Positions 1 through 60,863 of a DNA stretch of 60,863 nucleotides are shown piece after piece (positions within the stretch are counted from its first letter, which is position 1; each line of letters starts with the position of its first letter). A program made the position numbers and the translations under genes. Source of the stretch: Oscillospiraceae bacterium (GTDB lineage Bacteria; Bacillota; Clostridia; Oscillospirales; Oscillospiraceae); NCBI GenBank assembly GCA_024697625.1, contig JAILFJ010000046.1, forward strand, positions 1 to 60,863. The letters are read 5' to 3'. The notes below the pieces were generated by a model. The model searched no databases, was not told where the DNA came from, and saw only the letters and a program-made list of their open reading frames with translations.

Positions 1-134
1 TTTTGCCATCTTGAAGCACCTCATTCCCTTGAGTTGCTTCTATTCTACACCTCGACCTGTCCAAAAAATTTCCCTTGGTCCTGCCTTTTGGGCATATCTT
101 GTAGTCGGCTGATTAAAGCCGATACCCATATTAT
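1..134 (-). mobile_element. 5' end of an outward-facing insertion-sequence-like element (truncated by the window)
   Basis: On the minus strand an ATG at 9-7 begins Met-Ala-Lys and runs off the window. The 18 bases around this start are identical to those around the start codon at the other end of the window (60837). Positions 97-134 match 60723-60760 as an inverted repeat with one mismatch, and the block contains a small hairpin (TCGGCT / AGCCGA, 6-base loop). The likeness of the two ends, including a shared TAGAATAGAAGCA segment, suggests two related mobile elements pointing outward. The family is not identified: an IS3-type or IS200/IS605-type end are both possible. Confidence 0.5.
97..134 (-). 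repeat. Left copy of a 38-bp inverted repeat that bounds the window
   Basis: This is the reverse complement of 60723-60760 with one mismatch (37 of 38 bases). Identity stops abruptly on the side facing the window, which suggests that this block marks the edge of the repeated element. It contains the stem TCGGCT/AGCCGA. Confidence 0.75.
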
Positions 135-46549: not shown

Positions 46550-47812
46550 TTATAGCTTTTCCAGCAGATAGTCTCCGAATTCCGCACACCGTGCGCCGTC
46601 GCGGTGTCCGGTCACAATCACGCCCCGTTCCGTCTCCAGGCAGATCTCCAGCGCATTGTGCAGCCGGTCCGCCTGTTCGGTCATGGCGATATGCCGCAGC
46701 AGCATCTCGGCGGCCTTGAGGATGCTGGAAGGATTCGCGTATTCTCCCTCCCCCGCCTCAATTTTGCGGGGGGCCGAGCCGTGGATCGCCTCAAACATCG
46801 CGTAGCGGCTGCCGGTATTTGCGCTTCCGGCGGTCCCTACTCCGCCCTGGATCTGTGCCGCCTCATCCGTAATGATATCTCCGTAGAGGTTCGGCAGCAG
46901 AAAGACCTGGAAGCGCGAGCGCAGCCTGGGATTGACCAGATTCGCCGTCATGATGTCGATGTACCAGTCCTCCGCCTCGATCTCCGGGTAGTCTGCGGCG
47001 ACTTCATGCGCAATTCTGGAGAACATCCCGTCTGTTTTCTTCATGATGTTCGCCTTGGTGACAATCGCCACGTTTTTCTTTCCGTTGCGTCTGGCATACT
47101 CAAAGGCCGCTCTCGCAATCCTTCTGGTCCCCGCATCCGTTGTCACCTTGAAGTCCATCGTCAGAGCGCCGGGCAGTTCAACGCCGCGGCTGCCCAGTGC
47201 GTATTCGCCCTCTGTGTTCTCACGGAAGAAGATCCAGTCGATCCCCTCCTCCGGAACCGTGACCGGCCTCACGTTGGCGAAGAGGTCCAGCTCCCGGCGG
47301 AGCGTCACATTCGCGCTCTCCAGCGAGCCGCCCTTCGGCGTCGTCGTGGGCCCCTTCAGCAGCACGTCGCAGGATTTGATCGCCTCCAGCACGTCGTCAG
47401 GTACCGCTTTCCCCAGCGCGAGGCGATTCTCGATGGTGAGCCCCTCGATCTTTCGCAGCACAACCCTGCCGGAGCTGATTTCATCCGCAAGCAGCTTCTC
47501 CAGGACGCGTCTCGCCTCCCGCATGATGACAGGTCCGATCCCGTCGCCGTCGATGAGGCCTATGGTGATCCGCGCCTTCTCGGAATAATCCACTGCGGCT
47601 TCGCCCTCTTCCATCCGCTGCTGGCGCAGGAGCTGCTCCCGCAGCAGGACCTCAAAATGCGATACCGCCGCTCGGATCCCGGCTTCCGTACTCACGCCTG
47701 CCGTCTCTCCGGCGGTTCTTCCGGCCTGATCGCCGCCTTCCTTCTTTCCCTGCGCGGCGCTTTCGGATAAGCCATCTTCACGCTTCCTGTTCTCCGCCCA
47801 CCTGTCCATCAT
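46550..47812 (-). CDS. icd: Isocitrate dehydrogenase (NAD-type, isopropylmalate-dehydrogenase family)
   Basis: 420 residues. Oxidative decarboxylation of isocitrate to 2-oxoglutarate. The core starts near residue 80 with ITIGLIDGDGIGPVI. LKGPTTTPKGGSLESANVTLRRELDLFANVRP holds the substrate arginines, and NLYGDIITDEAAQIQGGVGTAGSAN the metal aspartates. A basic, low-complexity extension of about 45 residues precedes the FEVLLREQLLRQQ helix. The ATG at 47812 overlaps the aconitase stop as ATGA, fixing this start as the coupled one. It is the last gene of the citrate-to-2-oxoglutarate operon. Confidence 0.9.
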   Translation of the reverse strand: MMDRWAENRKREDGLSESAAQGKKEGGDQAGRTAGETAGVSTEAGIRAAVSHFEVLLREQLLRQQRMEEGEAAVDYSEKARITIGLIDGDGIGPVIMREARRVLEKLLADEISSGRVVLRKIEGLTIENRLALGKAVPDDVLEAIKSCDVLLKGPTTTPKGGSLESANVTLRRELDLFANVRPVTVPEEGIDWIFFRENTEGEYALGSRGVELPGALTMDFKVTTDAGTRRIARAAFEYARRNGKKNVAIVTKANIMKKTDGMFSRIAHEVAADYPEIEAEDWYIDIMTANLVNPRLRSRFQVFLLPNLYGDIITDEAAQIQGGVGTAGSANTGSRYAMFEAIHGSAPRKIEAGEGEYANPSSILKAAEMLLRHIAMTEQADRLHNALEICLETERGVIVTGHRDGARCAEFGDYLLEKL

Positions 47813-52065: not shown

Positions 52066-54492
52066 ATGTTCAGGAAGCTTCGTGATGCTCTGACCCAAAG
52101 TGAATATCTCCAATGCCAGGATGAGATCCGCAGCGAAAACCGCATGGCAATCCGTCTGCTGGCGATGTCCGGACTGCCGATCAGCATCGCCAACAGCGTG
52201 GTGCAGTGGACGGTGACCGACCGGCATCTCGCGCATATCGGAAGTTTCTTTCTGACAGGCTACTTTCTCCTCATGTTTCTGAGCGAGCGCTTCCTGATCC
52301 CCAGGAACAGCCGCCATACGACGCTGATTTTCTACCTGATGGAAGCGCCGATTCTGATGCTCTCCATTCTGCTCGGGACCGTATGGGACCCCCACTATCA
52401 GGCGACCACCTTTTTCCTGTTTCTGATGGCGCTGCCGGTCTTCCTTCTCGATCAGCCCTGGCGGTCGCTGCTCATCCACTCGGCGTGGACCGTTCTGTTT
52501 ATAAGCCTCTGCGTCCGGTTTAAGGAATCGGATATCGTCAGCATTGATCTTGTCCACGCGCTCGAGTTCTTTCTGTCCGCTACGGTCGTCACCAACGTGG
52601 TCATGCGCATCCGTCTCCGTTCACTGCGGAATCTGCAGGCTTCCAGATATCACCTGACGCATGACCGTATGACCGGCTGCCTCAACCGCTATGCTCTGGC
52701 GGAGGGCACCGAGCGTTACCTGAACCGCCCGCTGTTTCTTGTCTCGGCGGATCTGGACCAGCTGAGCTTTTACAACGATTTTTACGGCCGTGAGACCGGA
52801 GACGCCATGACCATGTTCTTTGCGAATGCGGTGGCCGAATGCTTCGGGACCGGGGATTCCTACCGCTATGCCGGAGACGAGATGCTCTGTGTGAGTATCG
52901 ACACGGACGAGGAGACCTGTCTCACCGGCATCGCGCGCTGCAGAGAGGCGCTGGCCGGCTTCCGCCTGAACGATCGGAAGCTCCCTCTGAACTGCTCCTT
53001 CGGCTATGTCAGCGGCACTCCCCGCACCGCGGAAGAGTTCCGCCAGATGGCACAGCTGGCCGACATCTATGCGCACCGGGTCAAGAAGGACGGCACCGGT
53101 CAGACTCTGGGCGGGCCCTTTGACCTTGAGAAGCTGAAGGCCGGCATCCTCGAGAGCAACATCACAAGCCATGTACACGCACAGGAGATCAACCGCCTGA
53201 CCGGTCTGCCCGGCATGTCCTACTTTATCGCCCGCTCAGACGAGCTTCTCCCCTCTGTGGCCGATCTGTCACAGCATCCGGTGGTAGGGCACTTCAAGCT
53301 GATGCATATGCGGGACTTCAACGACCGCTTTGGCTACGCGCAGGGAGATGCGCTGATCGCCGAGACGGCCGAGCTTCTTCGCACGCATTTCGGAAGCCGG
53401 CTTCTCTGCTACATCACCGGCGGCAAATTCGGGATCCTCTGCTACCAGGCGGAAGCAGAGCCTGCCCTGCGGAGCATCGGGGAGGCGCTTCAGAACTTCC
53501 GCCCGGGCTATCCGGTTTCGTTCAAGGCCGGCTTTTCTCCGTATACGGGTGAAAAGAGCGCCATCTCGCTTCTGGACGAGGCGAAGATCGCCCAGGAGAG
53601 CATTCAGAAAAATCGCTTCCAAGATATCTGTTTCTATGATCAGAAGCTGGACGAGGAGACCCGCTTCCGTCAGTATGTGGTCAGTCATCTGGACGAGGCA
53701 ATCGAAAAGCGATATCTGAAGGTATACTATCAGCCCATCGTCCGCAGCACCAGCCGAAAAGTCTGCAATGAGGAAGCTCTGTCCCGCTGGGATGACCCGA
53801 ACTACGGCTTTCTGATGCCGTACCGCTTTATCCCGCCTCTGGAGGAGAGCGGTCTGATGTACAGGATGAATCTGAATGTCGTGCGGCAGGTGCTGTCGGA
53901 CTTTGCCTACCGGAAGCGGACAGGTCTGCCTGTTGTTCCGGTTGCGGTCAATCTGTCCCGGCGTGACTTTGAACAGTGCGATATGGTTCAGGAGATCACC
54001 GACCTTGTGGATCGCTCCGGTTTTTCAAGGGATCTCATCAAGATCGAGATCACCGAATCCGCTTTCATCTCCAACCAGGAACTGATGCTCCGGGAGATCA
54101 GCCGTTTCCGCAAGAACGGTTTTGAGGTCTGGCTGGACGATTTCGGCAGCGAGTATTCCACCCTGAACCTGCTGCAGGAGGCCGACTTTGATCTGATCAA
54201 GCTGGACATGCACTTCATGCGGAACTTCAGGGAGAACAGCCGAAACTATATCATCGTTTCCGATATTCTTGATATGGCAAAGCGTATGGGAATCACCACT
54301 CTGGCCGAAGGCATCGAGACGGAGGAGCAGTATGCCCTGATAAAGAAGCTCGGCTGCGACAAGCTTCAGGGTTATCTCTTCAACCGGCCGAACAGCCTCT
54401 TCTACATCGAAAAACGTGCCAGGTCGGGGCGCGGCCTGCAGTTTGAAACCCAGGAGCACGCGGATGACTCCGTGTCAGGAGGATCGCCATGA
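52066..54492 (+). CDS. Membrane GGDEF-GGDEF-EAL protein, probable cyclic-di-GMP phosphodiesterase
   Basis: 808 residues. Residues 1-190 hold about six membrane segments forming a sensor. A first GGDEF-like domain (about 205-360) has AGDEM instead of GGDEF (about 270). A second (about 375-525) has GGKFG, also degenerate. The EAL domain (about 540-790) keeps EALSRW, VNLSRRDF, IEITESAF, LDDFGSEYSTL, the Lys in LIKLDMHF, EGIETEEQ and QGYLFNRP, so it should hydrolyse c-di-GMP. The two dead cyclase domains probably bind GTP or mediate control. It overlaps the next gene, an active-looking cyclase, by 4 bases. Confidence 0.9.
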   Translation: MFRKLRDALTQSEYLQCQDEIRSENRMAIRLLAMSGLPISIANSVVQWTVTDRHLAHIGSFFLTGYFLLMFLSERFLIPRNSRHTTLIFYLMEAPILMLSILLGTVWDPHYQATTFFLFLMALPVFLLDQPWRSLLIHSAWTVLFISLCVRFKESDIVSIDLVHALEFFLSATVVTNVVMRIRLRSLRNLQASRYHLTHDRMTGCLNRYALAEGTERYLNRPLFLVSADLDQLSFYNDFYGRETGDAMTMFFANAVAECFGTGDSYRYAGDEMLCVSIDTDEETCLTGIARCREALAGFRLNDRKLPLNCSFGYVSGTPRTAEEFRQMAQLADIYAHRVKKDGTGQTLGGPFDLEKLKAGILESNITSHVHAQEINRLTGLPGMSYFIARSDELLPSVADLSQHPVVGHFKLMHMRDFNDRFGYAQGDALIAETAELLRTHFGSRLLCYITGGKFGILCYQAEAEPALRSIGEALQNFRPGYPVSFKAGFSPYTGEKSAISLLDEAKIAQESIQKNRFQDICFYDQKLDEETRFRQYVVSHLDEAIEKRYLKVYYQPIVRSTSRKVCNEEALSRWDDPNYGFLMPYRFIPPLEESGLMYRMNLNVVRQVLSDFAYRKRTGLPVVPVAVNLSRRDFEQCDMVQEITDLVDRSGFSRDLIKIEITESAFISNQELMLREISRFRKNGFEVWLDDFGSEYSTLNLLQEADFDLIKLDMHFMRNFRENSRNYIIVSDILDMAKRMGITTLAEGIETEEQYALIKKLGCDKLQGYLFNRPNSLFYIEKRARSGRGLQFETQEHADDSVSGGSP

Positions 54493-55568
54493 ATCTGCTG
54501 CATGAATTTCTGAAGCAGGAAGTGCCAAAGAGCAGGAAGGAGCCGCTCCCCTATTATCTGGAGTCCATGAAGCTGAACGACGCCATCCTCTCGCTCTATT
54601 TTGCGCTGATCTCGATTCTGCTTCTGACCGTAAGCGCCCATGTCTTCTGGGTTCCGCTGCTCGCCCTCGCCGCCATGCTCGGAAAGCACTGGCTGATGCG
54701 GAAGCTCTGGTCCATCCGTCTGATTCTCCTGATGCATGCGCTGATTCTCTGGAGCTGGTGCACCTGGTGCATCATCACCTTCGGCTGGGGCTGCGGTGTA
54801 CAGCATTTTCTCCTGCTGATTATTCTGATGTCCTTTTTCTCGGTTTACGAGCCGCCGATGTTCAAGCTCGCCTATTTTCTGATGACGATGGCTGTCCGGC
54901 TTCTGCTGTACGACTACACCCTGTACCACGCCCCCATCATCGCCTTCGACGAACTGCATGCCTTCGTCAACCAGGTGCTCAACAGCATGGCCTTTTACTT
55001 CATTCTGGCGGGCTGCTGCGTGATCTACAGCAGCAACCTGCAGGAGACCATGCGTCAGCTCATGCTGCACAACGAAAGGCTGCAGCGGCAGGCCGAGACC
55101 GATCCCCTGACCAGGCTCTACAACCGGCGCTATATGCTCTTCGAGATGTCGCAGAGCATGGAGTTGAATCCGTCGATGATGTGCTGTGTGGCCATCGCGG
55201 ATATCGACTTTTTCAAGAAAGTCAACGACACCTACGGTCACAACTGCGGCGACTATGTTCTTCGGCAGCTCGCCTCTCTTCTGACCGAGATGAGCCAGGG
55301 CCGCTATACTGTGGCGCGCTGGGGCGGTGAGGAGTTCTGTTTTTTCTTCCCGAATATGAATCTGGACGATGCAGGCGCGCTGATCTGTGACATCTGTGCG
55401 GCTGTCCGCAAGATGGATCTGGAGTTTGAGGGGCATCGCTTCCATATCACGCTGACTGCCGGTGTTGAGGACAACGACTTCCGCTCCTCCCTGGATACGC
55501 TCATCGAGCGGGCGGACCGGAAGCTGTATATGGGCAAGCAGAACGGCCGTGACCAGGTTGTGGTCTGA
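54489..55568 (+). CDS. Membrane diguanylate cyclase (GGEEF)
   Basis: 359 residues. About six membrane segments (residues 30-190), a short coiled linker (MLHNERLQRQAETDPLTRLYNRR) and a complete GGDEF domain with active-site RWGGEEF (about 277-283) and metal site in IADIDFFKKVNDTYGH. It makes c-di-GMP from two GTP. No RxxD inhibitory site is obvious before GGEEF. It is translationally coupled to the phosphodiesterase-like gene, giving a matched synthesis and degradation pair. Confidence 0.92.
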   Translation: MNLLHEFLKQEVPKSRKEPLPYYLESMKLNDAILSLYFALISILLLTVSAHVFWVPLLALAAMLGKHWLMRKLWSIRLILLMHALILWSWCTWCIITFGWGCGVQHFLLLIILMSFFSVYEPPMFKLAYFLMTMAVRLLLYDYTLYHAPIIAFDELHAFVNQVLNSMAFYFILAGCCVIYSSNLQETMRQLMLHNERLQRQAETDPLTRLYNRRYMLFEMSQSMELNPSMMCCVAIADIDFFKKVNDTYGHNCGDYVLRQLASLLTEMSQGRYTVARWGGEEFCFFFPNMNLDDAGALICDICAAVRKMDLEFEGHRFHITLTAGVEDNDFRSSLDTLIERADRKLYMGKQNGRDQVVV

Positions 55569-56380: not shown

Positions 56381-56749
56381 TCACTTTCTCGGCGGAATGA
56401 TCTCGATCCAGTAGCCGTCAGGATCCAGGATGAAGTAGATTCCCATGGACGGATTCTCAAAGCAGATGATCCCCATCTCCCGATGCTTCTCATGCGCCGC
56501 GTCAAAATCCTCCGCCACAAAGGCCAGGTGGTACTCGCACTCTCCCAGGTCATAGGCCTCCGTACGGTCCCGCAGCCAGGTCAGCTCCAGGGTGAAGTCG
56601 CTGGTGCCGTCACCGAGAAACACGATGGTAAAGCTGTCGTCCGACGCCTGCTTCCGGCGTACCGGTTTCAGGCCCAGCGCCTCGTCATAGAACTTCAGGC
56701 TGCGTTCCAGATCCAGCACGTTGAAGTTAAAGTGGTTAAAACGAAACAT
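56381..56749 (-). CDS. VOC-superfamily (glyoxalase-like) protein
   Basis: 122 residues. RFNHFNFNVLDLERSLKFYDEALGLKP is the first beta-alpha-beta-beta module of the VOC fold, and YFILDPDGYWIEIIPPRK ends the second. His, Glu (LTLEL-type FTLELTW) and Glu (WIEI) are positioned as in metal-dependent glyoxalase I, so it may detoxify methylglyoxal; other VOC functions cannot be ruled out. GAGGAG lies upstream of the ATG. Confidence 0.88.
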   Translation of the reverse strand: MFRFNHFNFNVLDLERSLKFYDEALGLKPVRRKQASDDSFTIVFLGDGTSDFTLELTWLRDRTEAYDLGECEYHLAFVAEDFDAAHEKHREMGIICFENPSMGIYFILDPDGYWIEIIPPRK

Positions 56750-56761
56750 GGCTCTCTCCTC

Positions 56762-57139
56762 TCAGCCTGCGGCCTCCGTATCCGGTCTGACAAAACCGGT
56801 CGGCACACCGTGGGCGCCGATCGCGGCGAGGGCCTCGTCCATCGCCTTCTCGTTCTCGCTCATATAGTCGGCGAACTCCTTCCCCCCGCGCACAAAGACA
56901 ACCCGGTAGTAGTTGAAGTTCGCCTGTCCGCAGCACATGCGGCTTCTGGTCTCCTGGATGCGGATGAAGGCTCTCTCCAGTCCCTCATAGGGGATAAACC
57001 TTATCTTCAGGCCGTCACGGAAATAGACCCCGAGCGCTCCGACCCGAAGCTTTTCAAAGGTCTGTGCGCTCTCATAGTCGGCACTGACCTCCGGCGAGTC
57101 CACATTCCCGTTCACGCCCGCAAACCGTTTTTCTGCCAT
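56762..57139 (-). CDS. Conserved-looking small protein of unknown function
   Basis: 125 residues, soluble, no signal peptide. It has a CC pair in RMCCGQANFNYYRVV and an acidic helical tail. I do not recognise the family. GGAGGAGG lies 7 bases before the ATG and a good promoter lies upstream, so it is very likely translated. It leads the transcript with the VOC protein and rdgB, each 12 bases apart. Confidence 0.7.
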   Translation of the reverse strand: MAEKRFAGVNGNVDSPEVSADYESAQTFEKLRVGALGVYFRDGLKIRFIPYEGLERAFIRIQETRSRMCCGQANFNYYRVVFVRGGKEFADYMSENEKAMDEALAAIGAHGVPTGFVRPDTEAAG

Positions 57140-57170
57140 ATTCTTTCCTCCTCCGGAAAAATCTGACTGA

Positions 57171-57199
57171 AGTTTATCAGAAAAGGATTGCATCTTCAA
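57171..57199 (-). promoter_or_regulatory. Promoter of the unknown-VOC-rdgB transcript
   Basis: Minus strand TTGAAG (57199-57194), 17 bases, TAAACT (57176-57171). It overlaps the divergent flavodiiron promoter by 12 bases. Confidence 0.6.
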
Positions 57200-57216
57200 C
57201 AGTTTTTTTCTATAAT
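57188..57216 (+). promoter_or_regulatory. Promoter of the flavodiiron protein gene
   Basis: TTGCAT (57188-57193), 17 bases, TATAAT (57211-57216). The two divergent promoters share 57188-57199, so they cannot be occupied at once. Confidence 0.7.
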
Positions 57217-57259
57217 AGCTGCACTGTGTTGTCCGCCCCGCGGACAGAAGGGAGAAACC

Positions 57260-58465
57260 ATGTACTGCACAAGAAATGTTCATGACGATCTGATCTGGGT
57301 CGGCGCAGACGACCGCCGGCTCGTCTGCTTTGAGGGCGTCTACGGCGTCCCCGACGGCGTCAGCTATAATTCCTATCTGCTTCTGGATGAAAAGACCGTC
57401 CTGTTTGATACCTGCGACAGAGCCGTGTCCGATGTCTTCTTTGAGAATGTCTCGCACGCTCTCGGAGGCCGCAGGCTGGACTATCTGCTGATCTCGCACA
57501 TGGAGCCGGATCACGCTGCCACCGCCGAGGGGCTCCTTCTGCGGCATCCCGAGGCGAGGATTCTCTGCAACGCGAAAGAGAAGGCCATGCTGGAGCAGTT
57601 CTTCCCCGGCTTTGACTTTTCCGGGAGGATCGAGCTTGTCAAGGAGGGCGATGTCTTCTCCGCCGGAAAGCATGAGCTCCGCTTCCTGATGGCGCCGATG
57701 GTACACTGGCCGGAGGTCATGATGACCTATGACAGCACATCCCGGACGCTGTTCTCTGCGGACGCCTTCGGTGTTTTCGGTGCGCTGAACGGACGGCTCT
57801 TCGCGGATGAGGCCGACTTCTTCACCGAGAATCTCGGCGAGGCCCGGCGCTACTATACCAACATCGTCGGGAAATACGGCCCTCAGGTCCAGGCTGCGCT
57901 GAAGAAGGTCGCCGCCCTCGAGGTAGAGACCGTCTGCCCGCTCCACGGCTTCGTCTGGCGCAAGGGTTTTGACGCCTTTCTGGAGAAGTACAGGCTCTGG
58001 AGCAGCTATGAGCCGGAAGAGAAGAGTGTGCTGCTGGCCTATGCCTCGGTATACGGCCATACCGAAAACGCCGCCAACATCCTCGCGGCAAAGCTGGTGG
58101 AGCGCGGCGTAAGGGTCCGTATGTATGACACTTCCGTCACCCCCGCAAGCTACATCGTCTCCGACGCCTTCCGCTGCAGCCACCTTGTCTTTGCGGCGAC
58201 GACCTACAATGCGGGCGTCTTTGTCACGATGGAGAACCTGCTCCACGACCTCGCCGCGCACAACCTGCAGAAACGCAAAGTTGCCGTCATTGAGAACGGG
58301 AGCTGGGCGCCCATGAGCGGCAAGGTCATGCGCGAGCTCATCGCGCCGATGAAGAACATCGAGTTTGTCGCCGACAACGTCACGCTGAAGTCCGCCCTCA
58401 GTGAGGGGCAGCTCGCTGCGCTGGAAGCCCTCGCGGATACCATTGCGGCAGATTTGAAAGCCTGA
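57260..58465 (+). CDS. Flavodiiron protein (FprA family, A-type flavoprotein)
   Basis: 401 residues. The N-terminal beta-lactamase-like domain carries the diiron ligands HMEPDH (about 78-83), the His in MVHWPE, the Asp in FSADAFG and the His in PLHGFVW. From about 255 a flavodoxin domain binds FMN (YASVYGHTENAA). It reduces O2 to water or NO to N2O with electrons from rubredoxin, protecting anaerobes. The ATG at 57260 follows AGAAGGGAGA. No rubredoxin gene is adjacent. Confidence 0.95.
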   Translation: MYCTRNVHDDLIWVGADDRRLVCFEGVYGVPDGVSYNSYLLLDEKTVLFDTCDRAVSDVFFENVSHALGGRRLDYLLISHMEPDHAATAEGLLLRHPEARILCNAKEKAMLEQFFPGFDFSGRIELVKEGDVFSAGKHELRFLMAPMVHWPEVMMTYDSTSRTLFSADAFGVFGALNGRLFADEADFFTENLGEARRYYTNIVGKYGPQVQAALKKVAALEVETVCPLHGFVWRKGFDAFLEKYRLWSSYEPEEKSVLLAYASVYGHTENAANILAAKLVERGVRVRMYDTSVTPASYIVSDAFRCSHLVFAATTYNAGVFVTMENLLHDLAAHNLQKRKVAVIENGSWAPMSGKVMRELIAPMKNIEFVADNVTLKSALSEGQLAALEALADTIAADLKA

Positions 58466-58483
58466 CAACATACTGCACGGTTC

Positions 58484-58533
58484 AAAAAAGAGAGATGCCT
58501 GCCCCCAATTTGGGAGAAGCATCTCTCTTTTTT
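58484..58533. terminator. Bidirectional terminator between the flavodiiron gene and the DGR
   Basis: AAAAAAGAGAGATGC (58484-58498) pairs with GCATCTCTCTTTTTT (58519-58533), with an inner CCCAATTTGGG palindrome. A-rich and T-rich ends suit termination on both strands. Confidence 0.9.
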
Positions 58534-58550
58534 ATGCCCGCGGATGATGG

Positions 58551-59591
58551 TCAGCCTCTCTTACGCTCCGTCTTTTCAATTTCATCAGCCTGGTGCATCA
58601 TTTTCCATGTATTTCCATAGCTCATGTAATTCTCGTAGCTCTGAACCGACATACGGACAGTTTCTTCGGTAATCCGTCCGGCTGAATACTCTTCCCGCAG
58701 CTTCCACATCCGATGTTTCCATCGGATTTTGCTTTGCTTCTTCAGCCGCCGTATCACAGCCCCACTCTCCGTAAGACAGTATCGCCAGCCGAGATATTCC
58801 ACACCAGACGTGATCGGGAAAATCTGCGTCTTCGCGTTGAATTCCAGACCGAGCTCTACCAAAAGCGTCCTCATCTCCGTCAACGCATGATTCAGTTCTT
58901 CTTTACTGTGGCTGATCAGAATGCAGTCGTCCATATAGCGGGTGTAGAATTTGATCTGTAGTTTTTCTTTCACCAGTCTGTCCAGCGGATCCAGATAGTA
59001 CAGGGCAAACCACTGGCTGGTCTGGTTGCCCATCGGAATCCCCTTTCCCGGTGAGACTTCATAACTGTCAATGATTCCGAAGAGCATTCGGAGCGTGCGG
59101 TCATCATCAATGACTTCTGCAAGCTGATCTTTCAGAATCTGATGATCGATGCTGTCAAAAAACTTCCGGATATCGCACTTGAGAAAGTAACCGGTCCTGC
59201 CGTGTTTCCGGTAATGCTTAAGCAGAAAGTGATTGAGGCGGTTCATGGCAAAGAGCGTACCCTTCCCTTTACGGCAGGCAGCGTTGTCATAGATCAGATG
59301 GGTCTCAAAATACGGGGCCAGTACATTATCGCATAAGCTGTGCTGGACGATTCGGTCCCGGTAGTGCAACGCATAGATTTCCCGCACTTTCGGGTCGTAT
59401 ATCGTAAAGTGGTAATAGCCGGAGAGCCGGTAACTCTCGCTTCTCAATTCCTCCTGCAATCGGATCAACTGGATTCCCGCATCCATTTCGAACTCTACTA
59501 CTTCTCTTGTCTTACGCTTGCATCTGCGGGAAGCCAGATAGGCCCGGTAAAGGTTCTCAAAGGTGTAGATTTTCTCGTAGTCAAAAATCAC
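58551..59591 (-). CDS. Reverse transcriptase of a diversity-generating retroelement
   Basis: About 346 residues from the GTG at 59591 (GGAAAGA just upstream). All reverse transcriptase blocks are present: KCDIRKFFDSIDH (about 138-150) with the first catalytic Asp, GIPMGNQTSQWFALYYLDP (about 185-203), YTRYMDDCILI with the YMDD pair (about 217-222) and VEYLGWRYCLTESGAV. The GNxTSQ motif is characteristic of DGR enzymes. There is no maturase or HNH domain as in group II introns. The enzyme copies the template-repeat RNA with errors at adenines. The open frame continues upstream to a GTG at 59750, but that stretch looks like the RNA spacer found between template repeat and enzyme gene. An Avd-like gene and a template repeat lie upstream. 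Confidence 0.9.
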   Translation of the reverse strand: MIFDYEKIYTFENLYRAYLASRRCKRKTREVVEFEMDAGIQLIRLQEELRSESYRLSGYYHFTIYDPKVREIYALHYRDRIVQHSLCDNVLAPYFETHLIYDNAACRKGKGTLFAMNRLNHFLLKHYRKHGRTGYFLKCDIRKFFDSIDHQILKDQLAEVIDDDRTLRMLFGIIDSYEVSPGKGIPMGNQTSQWFALYYLDPLDRLVKEKLQIKFYTRYMDDCILISHSKEELNHALTEMRTLLVELGLEFNAKTQIFPITSGVEYLGWRYCLTESGAVIRRLKKQSKIRWKHRMWKLREEYSAGRITEETVRMSVQSYENYMSYGNTWKMMHQADEIEKTERKRG

Positions 59592-59829
59592 AATTCTTTC
59601 CGTTTCTGTTTCACGAAACCGCTCGGGGGATGCACGATCGGAAATTGCTATGACCGCGCATCCCAAAAGGCATTGCGAAAGCCGCTGATCAACGGCGTCC
59701 GGGCCTCCGTCGGCATGTTTTTCCGAGGGGGCTTTCTCCGTTCTGTTCACCGGAGAGAACCTTCATCCCTGCGAAAGGGAACGGTATTCCTTTCCTTTCC
59801 CATGCACTGGCTGCCGTTCGCACGGACAG
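59592..59829 (-). other. Spacer between template repeat and reverse transcriptase
   Basis: About 240 bases. The reading frame of the enzyme is open through most of it (from GTG 59750, which overlaps the stop of the template-repeat frame as GTGA), but the encoded residues resemble no reverse transcriptase N terminus. In characterised DGRs the RNA just downstream of the template is needed for priming cDNA synthesis, which would fit this place. Confidence 0.45.
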
Positions 59830-60007
59830 ACTTCCGGCAAATCGGGAAAGCGGGGCGCGCCGAGTTGTTGTCGTTGTTCACATTGTTGCTGTTGTCAAGG
59901 AAACCACCGGTATTCACATTTTCAGCGTTGTTCTGATTCTTACCGGGCGACCGCAGCCACCACCCATACAATACCGTACCCGAATAACGCCCTGGCTGAG
60001 CGTTCAT
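59830..60007 (-). other. DGR template repeat (adenine-rich, Asn-studded)
   Basis: Read on the minus strand the frame from ATG 60007 gives YGWWLRSPGKNQNNAENV and, further on, NNDNNSARPAF. Between Lys at 59941 and Ser at 59861, 12 of 27 residues are asparagine, coded by 8 AAC and 4 AAT codons. A template repeat uses AAY codons at the positions that become variable after adenine mutagenesis. WWLRSPG...ARPAF is the frame of DUF6273/FGE-like ligand-binding targets. An already diversified variable repeat would show Tyr, Ser, Asp and others here, not almost only Asn. The exact edges need alignment with the variable repeat; the adenine-rich core is 59861-59941. Confidence 0.88.
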
Positions 60008-60015
60008 TCCTGTAT

Positions 60016-60423
60016 TTATATCTTCTTTTCTTTCGTCGCTGTGTAACGTCGCAGATCACTGTTCATCCACGCTCCCAGCATATTCAGCGTGTCATAGGCA
60101 TGCCGGCAGATCTGCTCATACTGCTTTGGCTGGATCGCCCCCTGCTCCATGGAAACCTGCGCCACATAGACCAAGAGCTTCAATCGCGACATAGCTTTCC
60201 TCTGGTGCTCCCTACGCTGGATCAAAGCGGATTTGTTCTCTGGTTTGATAAAGATGTCATTTGCGAAGTAGAGTTCCTCGATAATATCCAAGGTATAATT
60301 CTGCAGTCGTCCGATCAGGGAGAAGCGAAACTGCTTCGGCGACTTTTGAGTGATGGTCATGATATAGGAGCATAGGTTTTTTGCAAAGGTAATAACCTGA
60401 AGTTCAAATTGTGGTGAAGCCAT
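60016..60423 (-). CDS. avd: Avd-like DGR accessory protein (four-helix bundle)
   Basis: 135 residues, predicted almost entirely helical, basic. FAKNLCSYIMTITQKSPKQFRFSLIGRLQNY and the later YVAQVSMEQGAIQPKQYEQI fit the four-helix-bundle (S23-like) proteins that act as Avd in DGRs. Avd forms a pentamer that binds the reverse transcriptase and template RNA. It is encoded directly before the template repeat, and its ATG overlaps the stop of the 85-residue gene (ATGA). Confidence 0.85.
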   Translation of the reverse strand: MASPQFELQVITFAKNLCSYIMTITQKSPKQFRFSLIGRLQNYTLDIIEELYFANDIFIKPENKSALIQRREHQRKAMSRLKLLVYVAQVSMEQGAIQPKQYEQICRHAYDTLNMLGAWMNSDLRRYTATKEKKI

Positions 60424-60680
60424 CAGTGTATTTCTGAGTCGAGGACAAACGCTTGTGCTTCATTGGCTATCTTTTTCTTCTGCAAATCCACAAAATCTTT
60501 AACAAACCATTTTGGAAGCTCTCTTTCCAGAAAACTGTCAAGTGTTCTGTTTACGATTTCAAGAATGCGGAGTAAAGGATCGTTTTGAAAGCATAACAAT
60601 GGGATAGGTGCTTCAGCGTGGAAATACCTGCATCTGTGATAGTAAGGAAAAGCGAAATATAAATATGCATGCCTCTTCAT
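60423..60680 (-). CDS. Unknown 85-residue protein coupled to the Avd gene
   Basis: No family recognised. It is rich in aromatic residues at the N terminus (AYLYFAFPYYHRCRYFHAEA), followed by a helical, charged second half (LPKWFVKDFVDLQKKKIANE). GGAG lies 10 bases before the ATG at 60680. The ATGA overlap with avd means the two are translated together, so it is probably part of the DGR operon. It could also be the shortened remnant of a longer gene cut by the element at the window edge. Confidence 0.65.
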   Translation of the reverse strand: MKRHAYLYFAFPYYHRCRYFHAEAPIPLLCFQNDPLLRILEIVNRTLDSFLERELPKWFVKDFVDLQKKKIANEAQAFVLDSEIH

Positions 60681-60722
60681 TTGTATTTGTCTCCAGACAA
60701 CAGCAAATAATCTTGATATAGG

Positions 60723-60760
60723 ATAATATGGGTATCGGCTTTAATCAGCCGACCACAAGA
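60723..60760 (+). repeat. Right copy of the 38-bp inverted repeat bounding the window
   Basis: This matches 97-134 in inverted orientation with one mismatch. It contains the TCGGCT/AGCCGA hairpin. Identity begins abruptly at ATAATATGGG. Confidence 0.75.
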
Positions 60761-60863
60761 AACTGTATTGTGTCCTGAAAATTAGACAGCAAAAGTAGTA
60801 GAATAGAAGCATCAAAGAGAACGGAGATGCTTCAAGATGGCAAAAGCAACACCAATTTCCTTC
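60723..60863 (+). mobile_element. 5' end of an outward-facing insertion-sequence-like element (truncated by the window)
   Basis: The shared 38-bp block is followed by a diverged stretch, then TAGAATAGAAGCA, as at the left end, and an ATG at 60837 starting MAKATPISF, which runs off the window. It is related but not identical to the left-end element: the segments between hairpin and start codon differ in length and sequence. TGTCC...GACA at 60772-60789 would suit an IS3-like end, but the family is unproved. Confidence 0.5.

What the first reader, a model, noticed from the sequence alone, without database searches (positions are those of the whole stretch)
58551..60680. A complete-looking diversity-generating retroelement cassette
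Within 2.1 kb on one strand lie an Avd-like four-helix protein, an adenine-rich template repeat and a reverse transcriptase with the GNQTSQ and YMDD motifs, all intact, in an AT-richer island between a terminator and an IS-like end. DGRs generate targeted protein diversity through adenine-specific mutagenesis. The parts are seen in the sequence; activity is inferred.
Basis: partly seen in the sequence, partly recalled or inferred. Interest (0 to 1): 0.9.

Follow-up and report, generated by a model that had tools for sequence, protein, structure and literature searches.

The report
Gene-mutating element rewriting a kinase's sensor
This stretch of a Clostridia-like draft genome carries a real diversity-generating retroelement, a cassette that deliberately mutates one gene, and the gene it appears to rewrite, found on another contig, encodes a membrane protein kinase whose predicted outside sensing domain is being randomised.

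Summary
On the minus strand of 58,551-60,423 lie a DGR reverse transcriptase, an adenine-rich template repeat (TR) and an Avd protein. The RT is separated from group II RTs in a tree; its best solved sequence match is a DGR RT. The window lacks a variable repeat (VR) because the contig breaks in an IS1595-type insertion sequence. The VR is at the end of contig C166: over 37 codons it differs from the TR at 19 of 33 adenines and 1 of 78 other bases. C166 and the window end in opposite IS ends and share a 10-bp duplication, so the order was very probably VP-ORF85-Avd-TR-RT. The VP is a Ser/Thr kinase with one predicted membrane helix and a C-terminal DUF6273 domain, a C-type-lectin-like fold. 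The genome has a second DGR and 26 DUF6273 domains; each TR convincingly matches one VR, the other tested copies look frozen. A covarying RNA lies between TR and RT. Kinase targets are known in cyanobacteria; I did not find this one in print for Clostridia. Activity, topology and ligand are untested.

The parts
58551..59591 (-). DGR reverse transcriptase, 346 aa, GTG start likely at 59591; GNQTSQ and YMDD motifs
   Evidence: PHROG reverse transcriptase E 2.5e-118; 8ub7 RT E 9.8e-43; best maturase/group II RT E 9.2e-13; tree
59687..59837 (-). Conserved structured RNA between TR and RT (DGR spacer RNA)
   Evidence: alignment with 3 relatives; covariance model hits upstream of RT in relatives; covariation; no Rfam match
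59846..59964 (-). Template repeat core (119 nt); its VR is at contig C166:54247-54365
59850..59862 (-). All-G/C run at the 3' end of the TR, shared with the VR; candidate IMH-like priming sequence (by analogy with BPP-1, recalled)
   Evidence: sequence; alignment
60016..60423 (-). Avd accessory protein, 135 aa, four-helix bundle
   Evidence: model pLDDT 89.7; Foldseek matches to BPP-1 Avd 4dwl and 8ub7_E at probability 1.00, E 0.036 and 0.055
60423..60680 (-). 85-aa ORF of unknown function; 45% identical over 53 aa to an ORF upstream of the DUF6273 gene of a relative's DGR locus (L077)
60718..60727 (.). 10-bp target-site duplication ATAGGATAAT; its reverse complement flanks the opposite IS end on contig C166
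60728..60863 (+). End of an IS1595-type insertion sequence (transposase ORF starts about 60838), at which the contig stops
58484..58533 (.). Terminator-like inverted repeat between the RT and the neighbouring metallo-hydrolase/flavodoxin gene
   Evidence: (consensus match only)

Best explanation
This is a cellular diversity-generating retroelement whose target is a membrane receptor-type Ser/Thr kinase. SHOWN by sequence: (1) RT, Avd, TR and a covarying spacer RNA are present. (2) The 3' end of a kinase gene on contig C166 (52236-54392) carries the VR, which matches the TR except at adenines. (3) C166 and the window end in opposite ends of one IS family and share the same 10-bp duplication, so the order before the IS jumped in was very probably kinase-VP, ORF85, Avd, TR, RT. 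INFERRED from established DGR biology: the TR-spacer RNA is bound by RT and Avd, copied with errors at adenines, and the cDNA replaces the VR from a G/C-rich 3' priming site. The result is a randomised loop surface on the DUF6273 (C-type-lectin-like) domain. INFERRED from architecture: that domain sits outside the membrane, is joined by a Thr/Pro-rich linker and one helix to a cytoplasmic Hanks-type kinase, and serves as a changeable ligand sensor. The other DUF6273 proteins tested are diverged paralogs, not current targets of either TR in this assembly.
Confidence: 0.86

Rival explanations
1. A fossil or stalled DGR: it wrote the kinase VR in the recent past but the IS inserted between target and machinery, or another lesion, has stopped it.
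For: IS lies between VP stop and ORF85. A relative with a shortened Avd ORF (L076, 77 aa) shows decay: 11/80 non-A mismatches.
Against: RT motifs, Avd, TR and spacer RNA are all intact and only 1 of 78 non-A positions differs.
Confidence: 0.3
2. The DGR acts in trans on many of the 26 DUF6273 copies, so the whole family is being diversified now.
For: Several paralog VRs differ more at TR adenines than elsewhere (for example C11:5755, 22/33 against 16/78). Ranked against seven TRs, 6 of 13 non-cognate kinase-type segments fit the window TR best and 6 of 6 LRR-type segments fit the C24 TR best.
Against: Apart from the two cognate VRs, every tested segment has at least 12 non-A mismatches against its better TR (24 of 26 domains tested). 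In one close paralog pair the VR is no more diverged than most of the gene: VR 37/42, scaffold 117/128, N-terminal part 394/521 identical. The five kinase segments on C88:49894-56902 fit neither own TR well.
Confidence: 0.08
3. Another kind of reverse transcriptase (group II intron, retron or defence RT) beside an unrelated repeat.
For: PADLOC and NCBIfam RT models match: TIGR04416 100.6 bits against a cut-off of 300; PADLOC's generic RT model 136.5 bits.
Against: Tree, 8ub7 match, Avd, and the adenine-specific VR.
Confidence: 0.01

Closest known systems
Cyanobacterial DGRs with Ser/Thr kinase-CLec targets and paralogs (PMC7517822; passages seen)
   Same: DGR target is a Hanks-type kinase with a C-terminal variable CLec domain; dispersed paralogs; sometimes two DGRs in a genome
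   Different: [quoted passage not shown] here all 8 kinase-DUF6273 proteins with an unbroken kinase have one membrane-type segment between kinase and sensor. Here the variable domain is DUF6273 and the host is Clostridia-like
Thiohalocapsa PB-PSB1 DGR putative antigen sensors (PMC10907252; passages and section 5 seen)
   Same: Several DGRs in one genome; targets joined to effector domains including protein kinase and TIR; membrane segments are among the listed domains
   Different: A multicellular bacterium with CLec targets, 15 targets and 21 VRs; here DUF6273 and one convincing VR per TR
Faecalibacterium and other gut phage DGRs with DUF6273 targets (PMC11792537, PMC10743442; passages seen)
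   Same: VR in DUF6273, a C-type-lectin-like fold
   Different: Phage proteins thought to bind receptors; best phage-record RT match to this RT is 44.3% identical against 73% for the closest genome contigs
Bordetella phage BPP-1 DGR (Avd 4dwl; RT ribonucleoprotein 8ub7; rest recalled)
   Same: RT, Avd, TR, spacer RNA and adenine-specific VR
   Different: Target (Mtd) is a phage tail protein

Membership tests
Diversity-generating retroelement | Reverse transcriptase of the DGR lineage | tested here: met
   the comparison rows in the tree were mostly found with this RT as query, and five of them (L076, L077, L079, L080, L083) have a TR-like repeat beside the RT
Diversity-generating retroelement | TR with a VR differing almost only at TR adenines | tested here: met
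   19/33 A against 1/78 non-A over 37 codons; 21/36 against 10/104 over a 140-nt alignment that runs past the TR end
Diversity-generating retroelement | Accessory protein (Avd type) beside the RT | tested here: met
   PHROG Avd E 2.2e-18, model and fold match; below the curated cut-offs of NCBIfam and Pfam
Diversity-generating retroelement | VR in the C-terminal part of a C-type-lectin-fold protein | tested here: met
   VR ends 9 codons before the stop; fold tested on a DUF6273 relative 61% identical to the VP domain, not on the VP itself
Diversity-generating retroelement | Target gene linked to TR and RT | tested here: inconclusive
   Contig broken; linkage inferred from opposite IS ends and shared 10-bp duplication
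Diversity-generating retroelement | Mutagenic retrohoming activity | not testable with these tools
   Needs population reads or an experiment
Group II intron reverse transcriptase/maturase | TIGR04416 score at least 300 bits and grouping with group II RTs | tested here: not met
   100.6 bits; outside the group II clade, 100/100, with a long-branch warning
Known defence reverse transcriptases (Drt, retron models) | Score over NCBIfam cut-offs | tested here: not met
   Best of them Drt3a, 84.5 bits against a cut-off of 200

The most novel reading that the evidence does not exclude
The genome runs a receptor repertoire: two DGRs, of separate RT lineages, each keep rewriting one DUF6273 sensor, while duplication of the rewritten genes deposits frozen sensors joined to membrane kinases (nine genes in all, one with a split kinase) or to LRR and DUF4132 modules. 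That would be a surface-sensing, antigen-receptor-like system with a hypermutating founder gene and an archive of fixed copies.
Probability: 0.2. Interest if true: 0.75.

Novelty: new member of a known kind. Interest (0 to 1): 0.5.

Why it matters
In the papers I saw, DGR targets tied to signalling enzymes are described in cyanobacteria and other multicellular bacteria and read as sensors of environment or conflict. A Clostridia-like genome with a DGR written into a membrane kinase's sensor, and with 26 DUF6273 domains where the sampled relatives show at most 5 at the cut-offs used, offers a possible system in which a randomised sensor and its enzyme could be tested together.

Tried and rejected
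Orphan trans-acting DGR: first suspected because the window holds no VR; dropped when the C166 end and the window end proved to be opposite IS ends with one 10-bp duplication. Other VRs as current targets: not supported. Contamination as the source of the DUF6273 copies: for C24, C75, C87 and C166, stretches away from the DUF6273 genes match the window's tetranucleotide profile (r 0.94-0.985; 7-kb pieces of the window itself give 0.908-0.978). C88 is lower (0.865), C154 lower still (0.788), C56's short rest is uninformative (0.468), and C25, which supplied the complete IS copy, is also low (0.462); C11, C97, C39 and C14 were compared only around the DUF6273 genes. Population test through protein clusters: no near-identical strains among the listed hits. 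Phage or plasmid origin: genome relatives are closer (73%) than phage records (44.3%), plasmids (41.1%) or viral contigs (at most 45%). Rfam: nothing at E<=1 for 56500-60863. First alignment script used the wrong strand and its numbers were discarded. Two low hits of the RNA model (window 47689-47736 and L084 minus strand, E 0.52 and 0.61) are taken as chance but remained in alignment A5 when pairs were counted. In one search, the own genome counts 21 because only 21 of 28 candidates were scored. L077's TR was not caught by the script, so its TR-VR pair was not counted.

Full report
OBSERVATION. The interval holds, on the minus strand, an RT ORF, a TR and an Avd ORF. The RT has GNQTSQ and YMDD. 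It matches PHROG reverse transcriptase at E 2.5e-118. Among solved structures its best sequence match is 8ub7_A (E 9.8e-43), an entry titled DGR ribonucleoprotein reverse transcriptase; the best maturase/group II match is E 9.2e-13. In a tree of 39 RTs, five group II-type RTs (three over the TIGR04416 cut-off of 300 bits, two just under at 294.3 and 281.9) are split from the other 34 with 100/100 support. The window RT sits with uncultured Clostridia RTs L076, L077 and L078 (100/100), at up to 73% identity. The tree program warned that long branches meet at the deep split, the root is the midpoint, no retron or defence RT was included, and most comparison rows were found with this RT as query. 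Avd matches the PHROG Avd family (E 2.2e-18) but stays below NCBIfam's and Pfam's cut-offs. Its model has four helices. Foldseek lists BPP-1 Avd 4dwl (E 0.036, probability 1.00) and 8ub7_E (E 0.055), behind 2gsc and at the level of 2rld, which have a similar bundle. The TR is at 59846-59964. The island has 48.0% G+C against 61.0% for the window.

THE MISSING VARIABLE REPEAT. No VR was found in the window: the search of the own genome (3.55 Mb, 181 contigs, 89.25% complete) returned no second match on this contig, and C166:54247-54365 at 83% over 119 nt as the best match besides the TR itself. Codon by codon over 37 codons, 19 of 33 TR adenines and 1 of 78 other bases differ; Fisher p 1.2e-11. 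Over a longer 140-nt alignment the figures are 21/36 and 10/104; the nine further non-A differences all lie past the shared 3' end. That end includes an all-G/C run (59850-59862), a candidate priming (IMH) site by recalled analogy with BPP-1.

WHY THE CONTIG HIDES IT. C166 ends 154 bases after the VP stop, and the window ends 183 bases beyond ORF85. Both ends are termini of the same IS family, but opposite termini. A complete 991-bp copy on C25 encodes an IS1595-type transposase and has a 10-bp duplication. The 10 bp outside the IS read ATAGGATAAT at the window and its exact reverse complement at C166. Flanks of this IS are 93% A+T, and three other left-right pairs of AT-only flanks also match at 10/10 (C64 and C55 with C114; C38's start with C63). 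With position-specific base frequencies from 16 other flanks, a chance match of this GG-containing 10-mer is about 1e-4 to 7e-4. Together with the TR-VR match, the order before insertion was very probably kinase-VP, ORF85, Avd, TR, RT. The C24 DGR of this genome and relatives L079, L080 and L102 show VP-Avd-TR-RT order (L102 has an extra ORF before RT); in L083 the VP lies after the RT.

A FAMILY AROUND IT. The own genome has 28 DUF6273 matches. Two are the TRs, leaving 26 domains in 20 ORFs (counted). Nine ORFs join DUF6273 to a kinase; one of them, upstream of the VP on C166, has its kinase split by a frame change and a sub-cut-off kinase score. Five join it to LRR_5, three of these also to DUF4132 (C87, C75, C56). 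Of 26 domains I tested 24; those on C39 and C154 were missed by my motif filters. Only two fit as a current product of a TR: C166:54222 with the window TR, and C24:4698 with the C24 TR (22/33 A, 0/75 non-A, 2 codon gaps). The rest have at least 12 non-A mismatches with their better TR. Against seven TRs, 6 of 13 non-cognate kinase-type segments fit the window TR best, and 6 of 6 LRR-type segments fit the C24 TR best. In a close paralog pair the VR (37/42) is no more diverged than the N-terminal part (394/521), and close to the scaffold (117/128). The copies look frozen, though several still carry an excess of differences at adenines, which fits old DGR writing or selection for variability at the same sites.

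DISTRIBUTION. Of 61 genus genomes, 31 have DUF6273 at E<=0.001; this genome has 28 matches and the next highest has 5. Of 150 family genomes, 36 have matches at E<=1e-10; this genome has 21 and the next highest has 5. Close relatives of this RT (E<=1e-60) occur in 1 of 101 genus genomes and 3 of 150 family genomes, this genome included. A more distant RT with YMDD and GNLTSQ exists in genus member G154, so DGR-like RTs are not absent from the genus. Kinase plus DUF6273 proteins are common in metagenomes: 79 of the 120 listed hits (of 1879) by my reading, one of them from this genome. Other DGR targets in relatives include TIR-TPR-DUF6273; in L080 the VR differs at 21/34 adenines and 0/80 other bases, and L079 has the same architecture with its VR masked.

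SPACER RNA. Between TR and RT lies a conserved stretch. A covariance model from seven sequences was searched over 62 sources, among them 56 of the 80 loci, and gave 19 hits at E<=1. Seven are the training loci. Ten are further plus-strand hits (L078, L079, L081, L083-L087, L089, L094; E from 6e-23 to 0.02); nine end 68-139 bases before the RT match and L087's ends 567 before it. Two are chance-level. The other 45 sources gave none. On the hit alignment 9 of 16 pairs show changes on both sides (shuffles 4.8 +/- 1.4; covariation 0.255 against 0.167), and slides of 1 to 3 columns score lower. That alignment was fitted to the structure, which favours it; on the seven-sequence MAFFT alignment the covariation term was only -0.22 kcal/mol and 2 of 16 pairs had compensatory changes. 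The single window sequence folds at z -2.3. No Rfam family matches.

COMPARISON AND NOVELTY. Kinase targets with paralogs are in print for cyanobacteria (PMC7517822, passages), where most VPs are predicted cytosolic but some have membrane or signal segments. TIR and kinase targets are listed for Thiohalocapsa (PMC10907252, passages and section 5). DUF6273 targets are in print for gut phages (PMC11792537, PMC10743442, passages). The global survey PMC8144416 (passages) says its method would miss DGRs whose VR is not next to the RT. In searches (listings) and a term search of the review PMC10053308 I saw no paper on DGR-written membrane kinases of Clostridia; the library holds open-licence papers only. 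I therefore file it as a new member of a known kind, with moderate interest for its target.

WHAT IS NOT SHOWN. The physical join, current activity, membrane topology and ligand. The IS may have weakened or stopped the element.

Noticed in passing
G000:C24:2061-6840: A second complete DGR in the same genome: VP with LRR_5, carboxypeptidase-regulatory-like domains and DUF6273, then Avd, TR and RT; RT 52% identical to the window's and in a different clade.
   Followed up: yes
L080:301-2820 and L079:2531-5179: DGR target proteins with TIR, TPR and DUF6273 domains in Clostridia MAGs; in L080 the VR differs from the TR only at adenines (21/34 against 0/80).
   Followed up: partly
L076:4575-5990, L077:4569-5990, L102:1621-3366: In three close relatives other genes (in L076 DUF4869 plus an ATPase with sub-cut-off nSTAND matches, in L077 a similar-looking pair, in L102 a 581-aa ORF without Pfam match) sit between TR-spacer RNA and RT, where the window has only about 95 bases between spacer RNA and RT.
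   Followed up: partly
G000 contigs C87, C75, C56: Five large proteins combining an N-terminal DUF6273 with BspA-type LRR and, in three, DUF4132; their VR-like part is internal and best matches the C24 TR.
   Followed up: partly
G000:C166:48924-52201: Directly upstream of the DGR target lies a second kinase-DUF6273 gene with two DUF6273 domains whose kinase part is split over two frames (decay or assembly error).
   Followed up: no
window 59687-59837 and relatives: Covarying DGR spacer RNA without an Rfam match; could found a small RNA family for Clostridia-type DGRs.
   Followed up: partly
window 1-134 and 60728-60863: The contig ends in an IS1595-type IS end and begins with a related IS end (73% identical), which explains its limits.
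   Followed up: partly
window 52066-55568: Adjacent GGDEF-EAL (808 aa) and GGDEF (359 aa) genes, overlapping by 4 bases.
   Followed up: no
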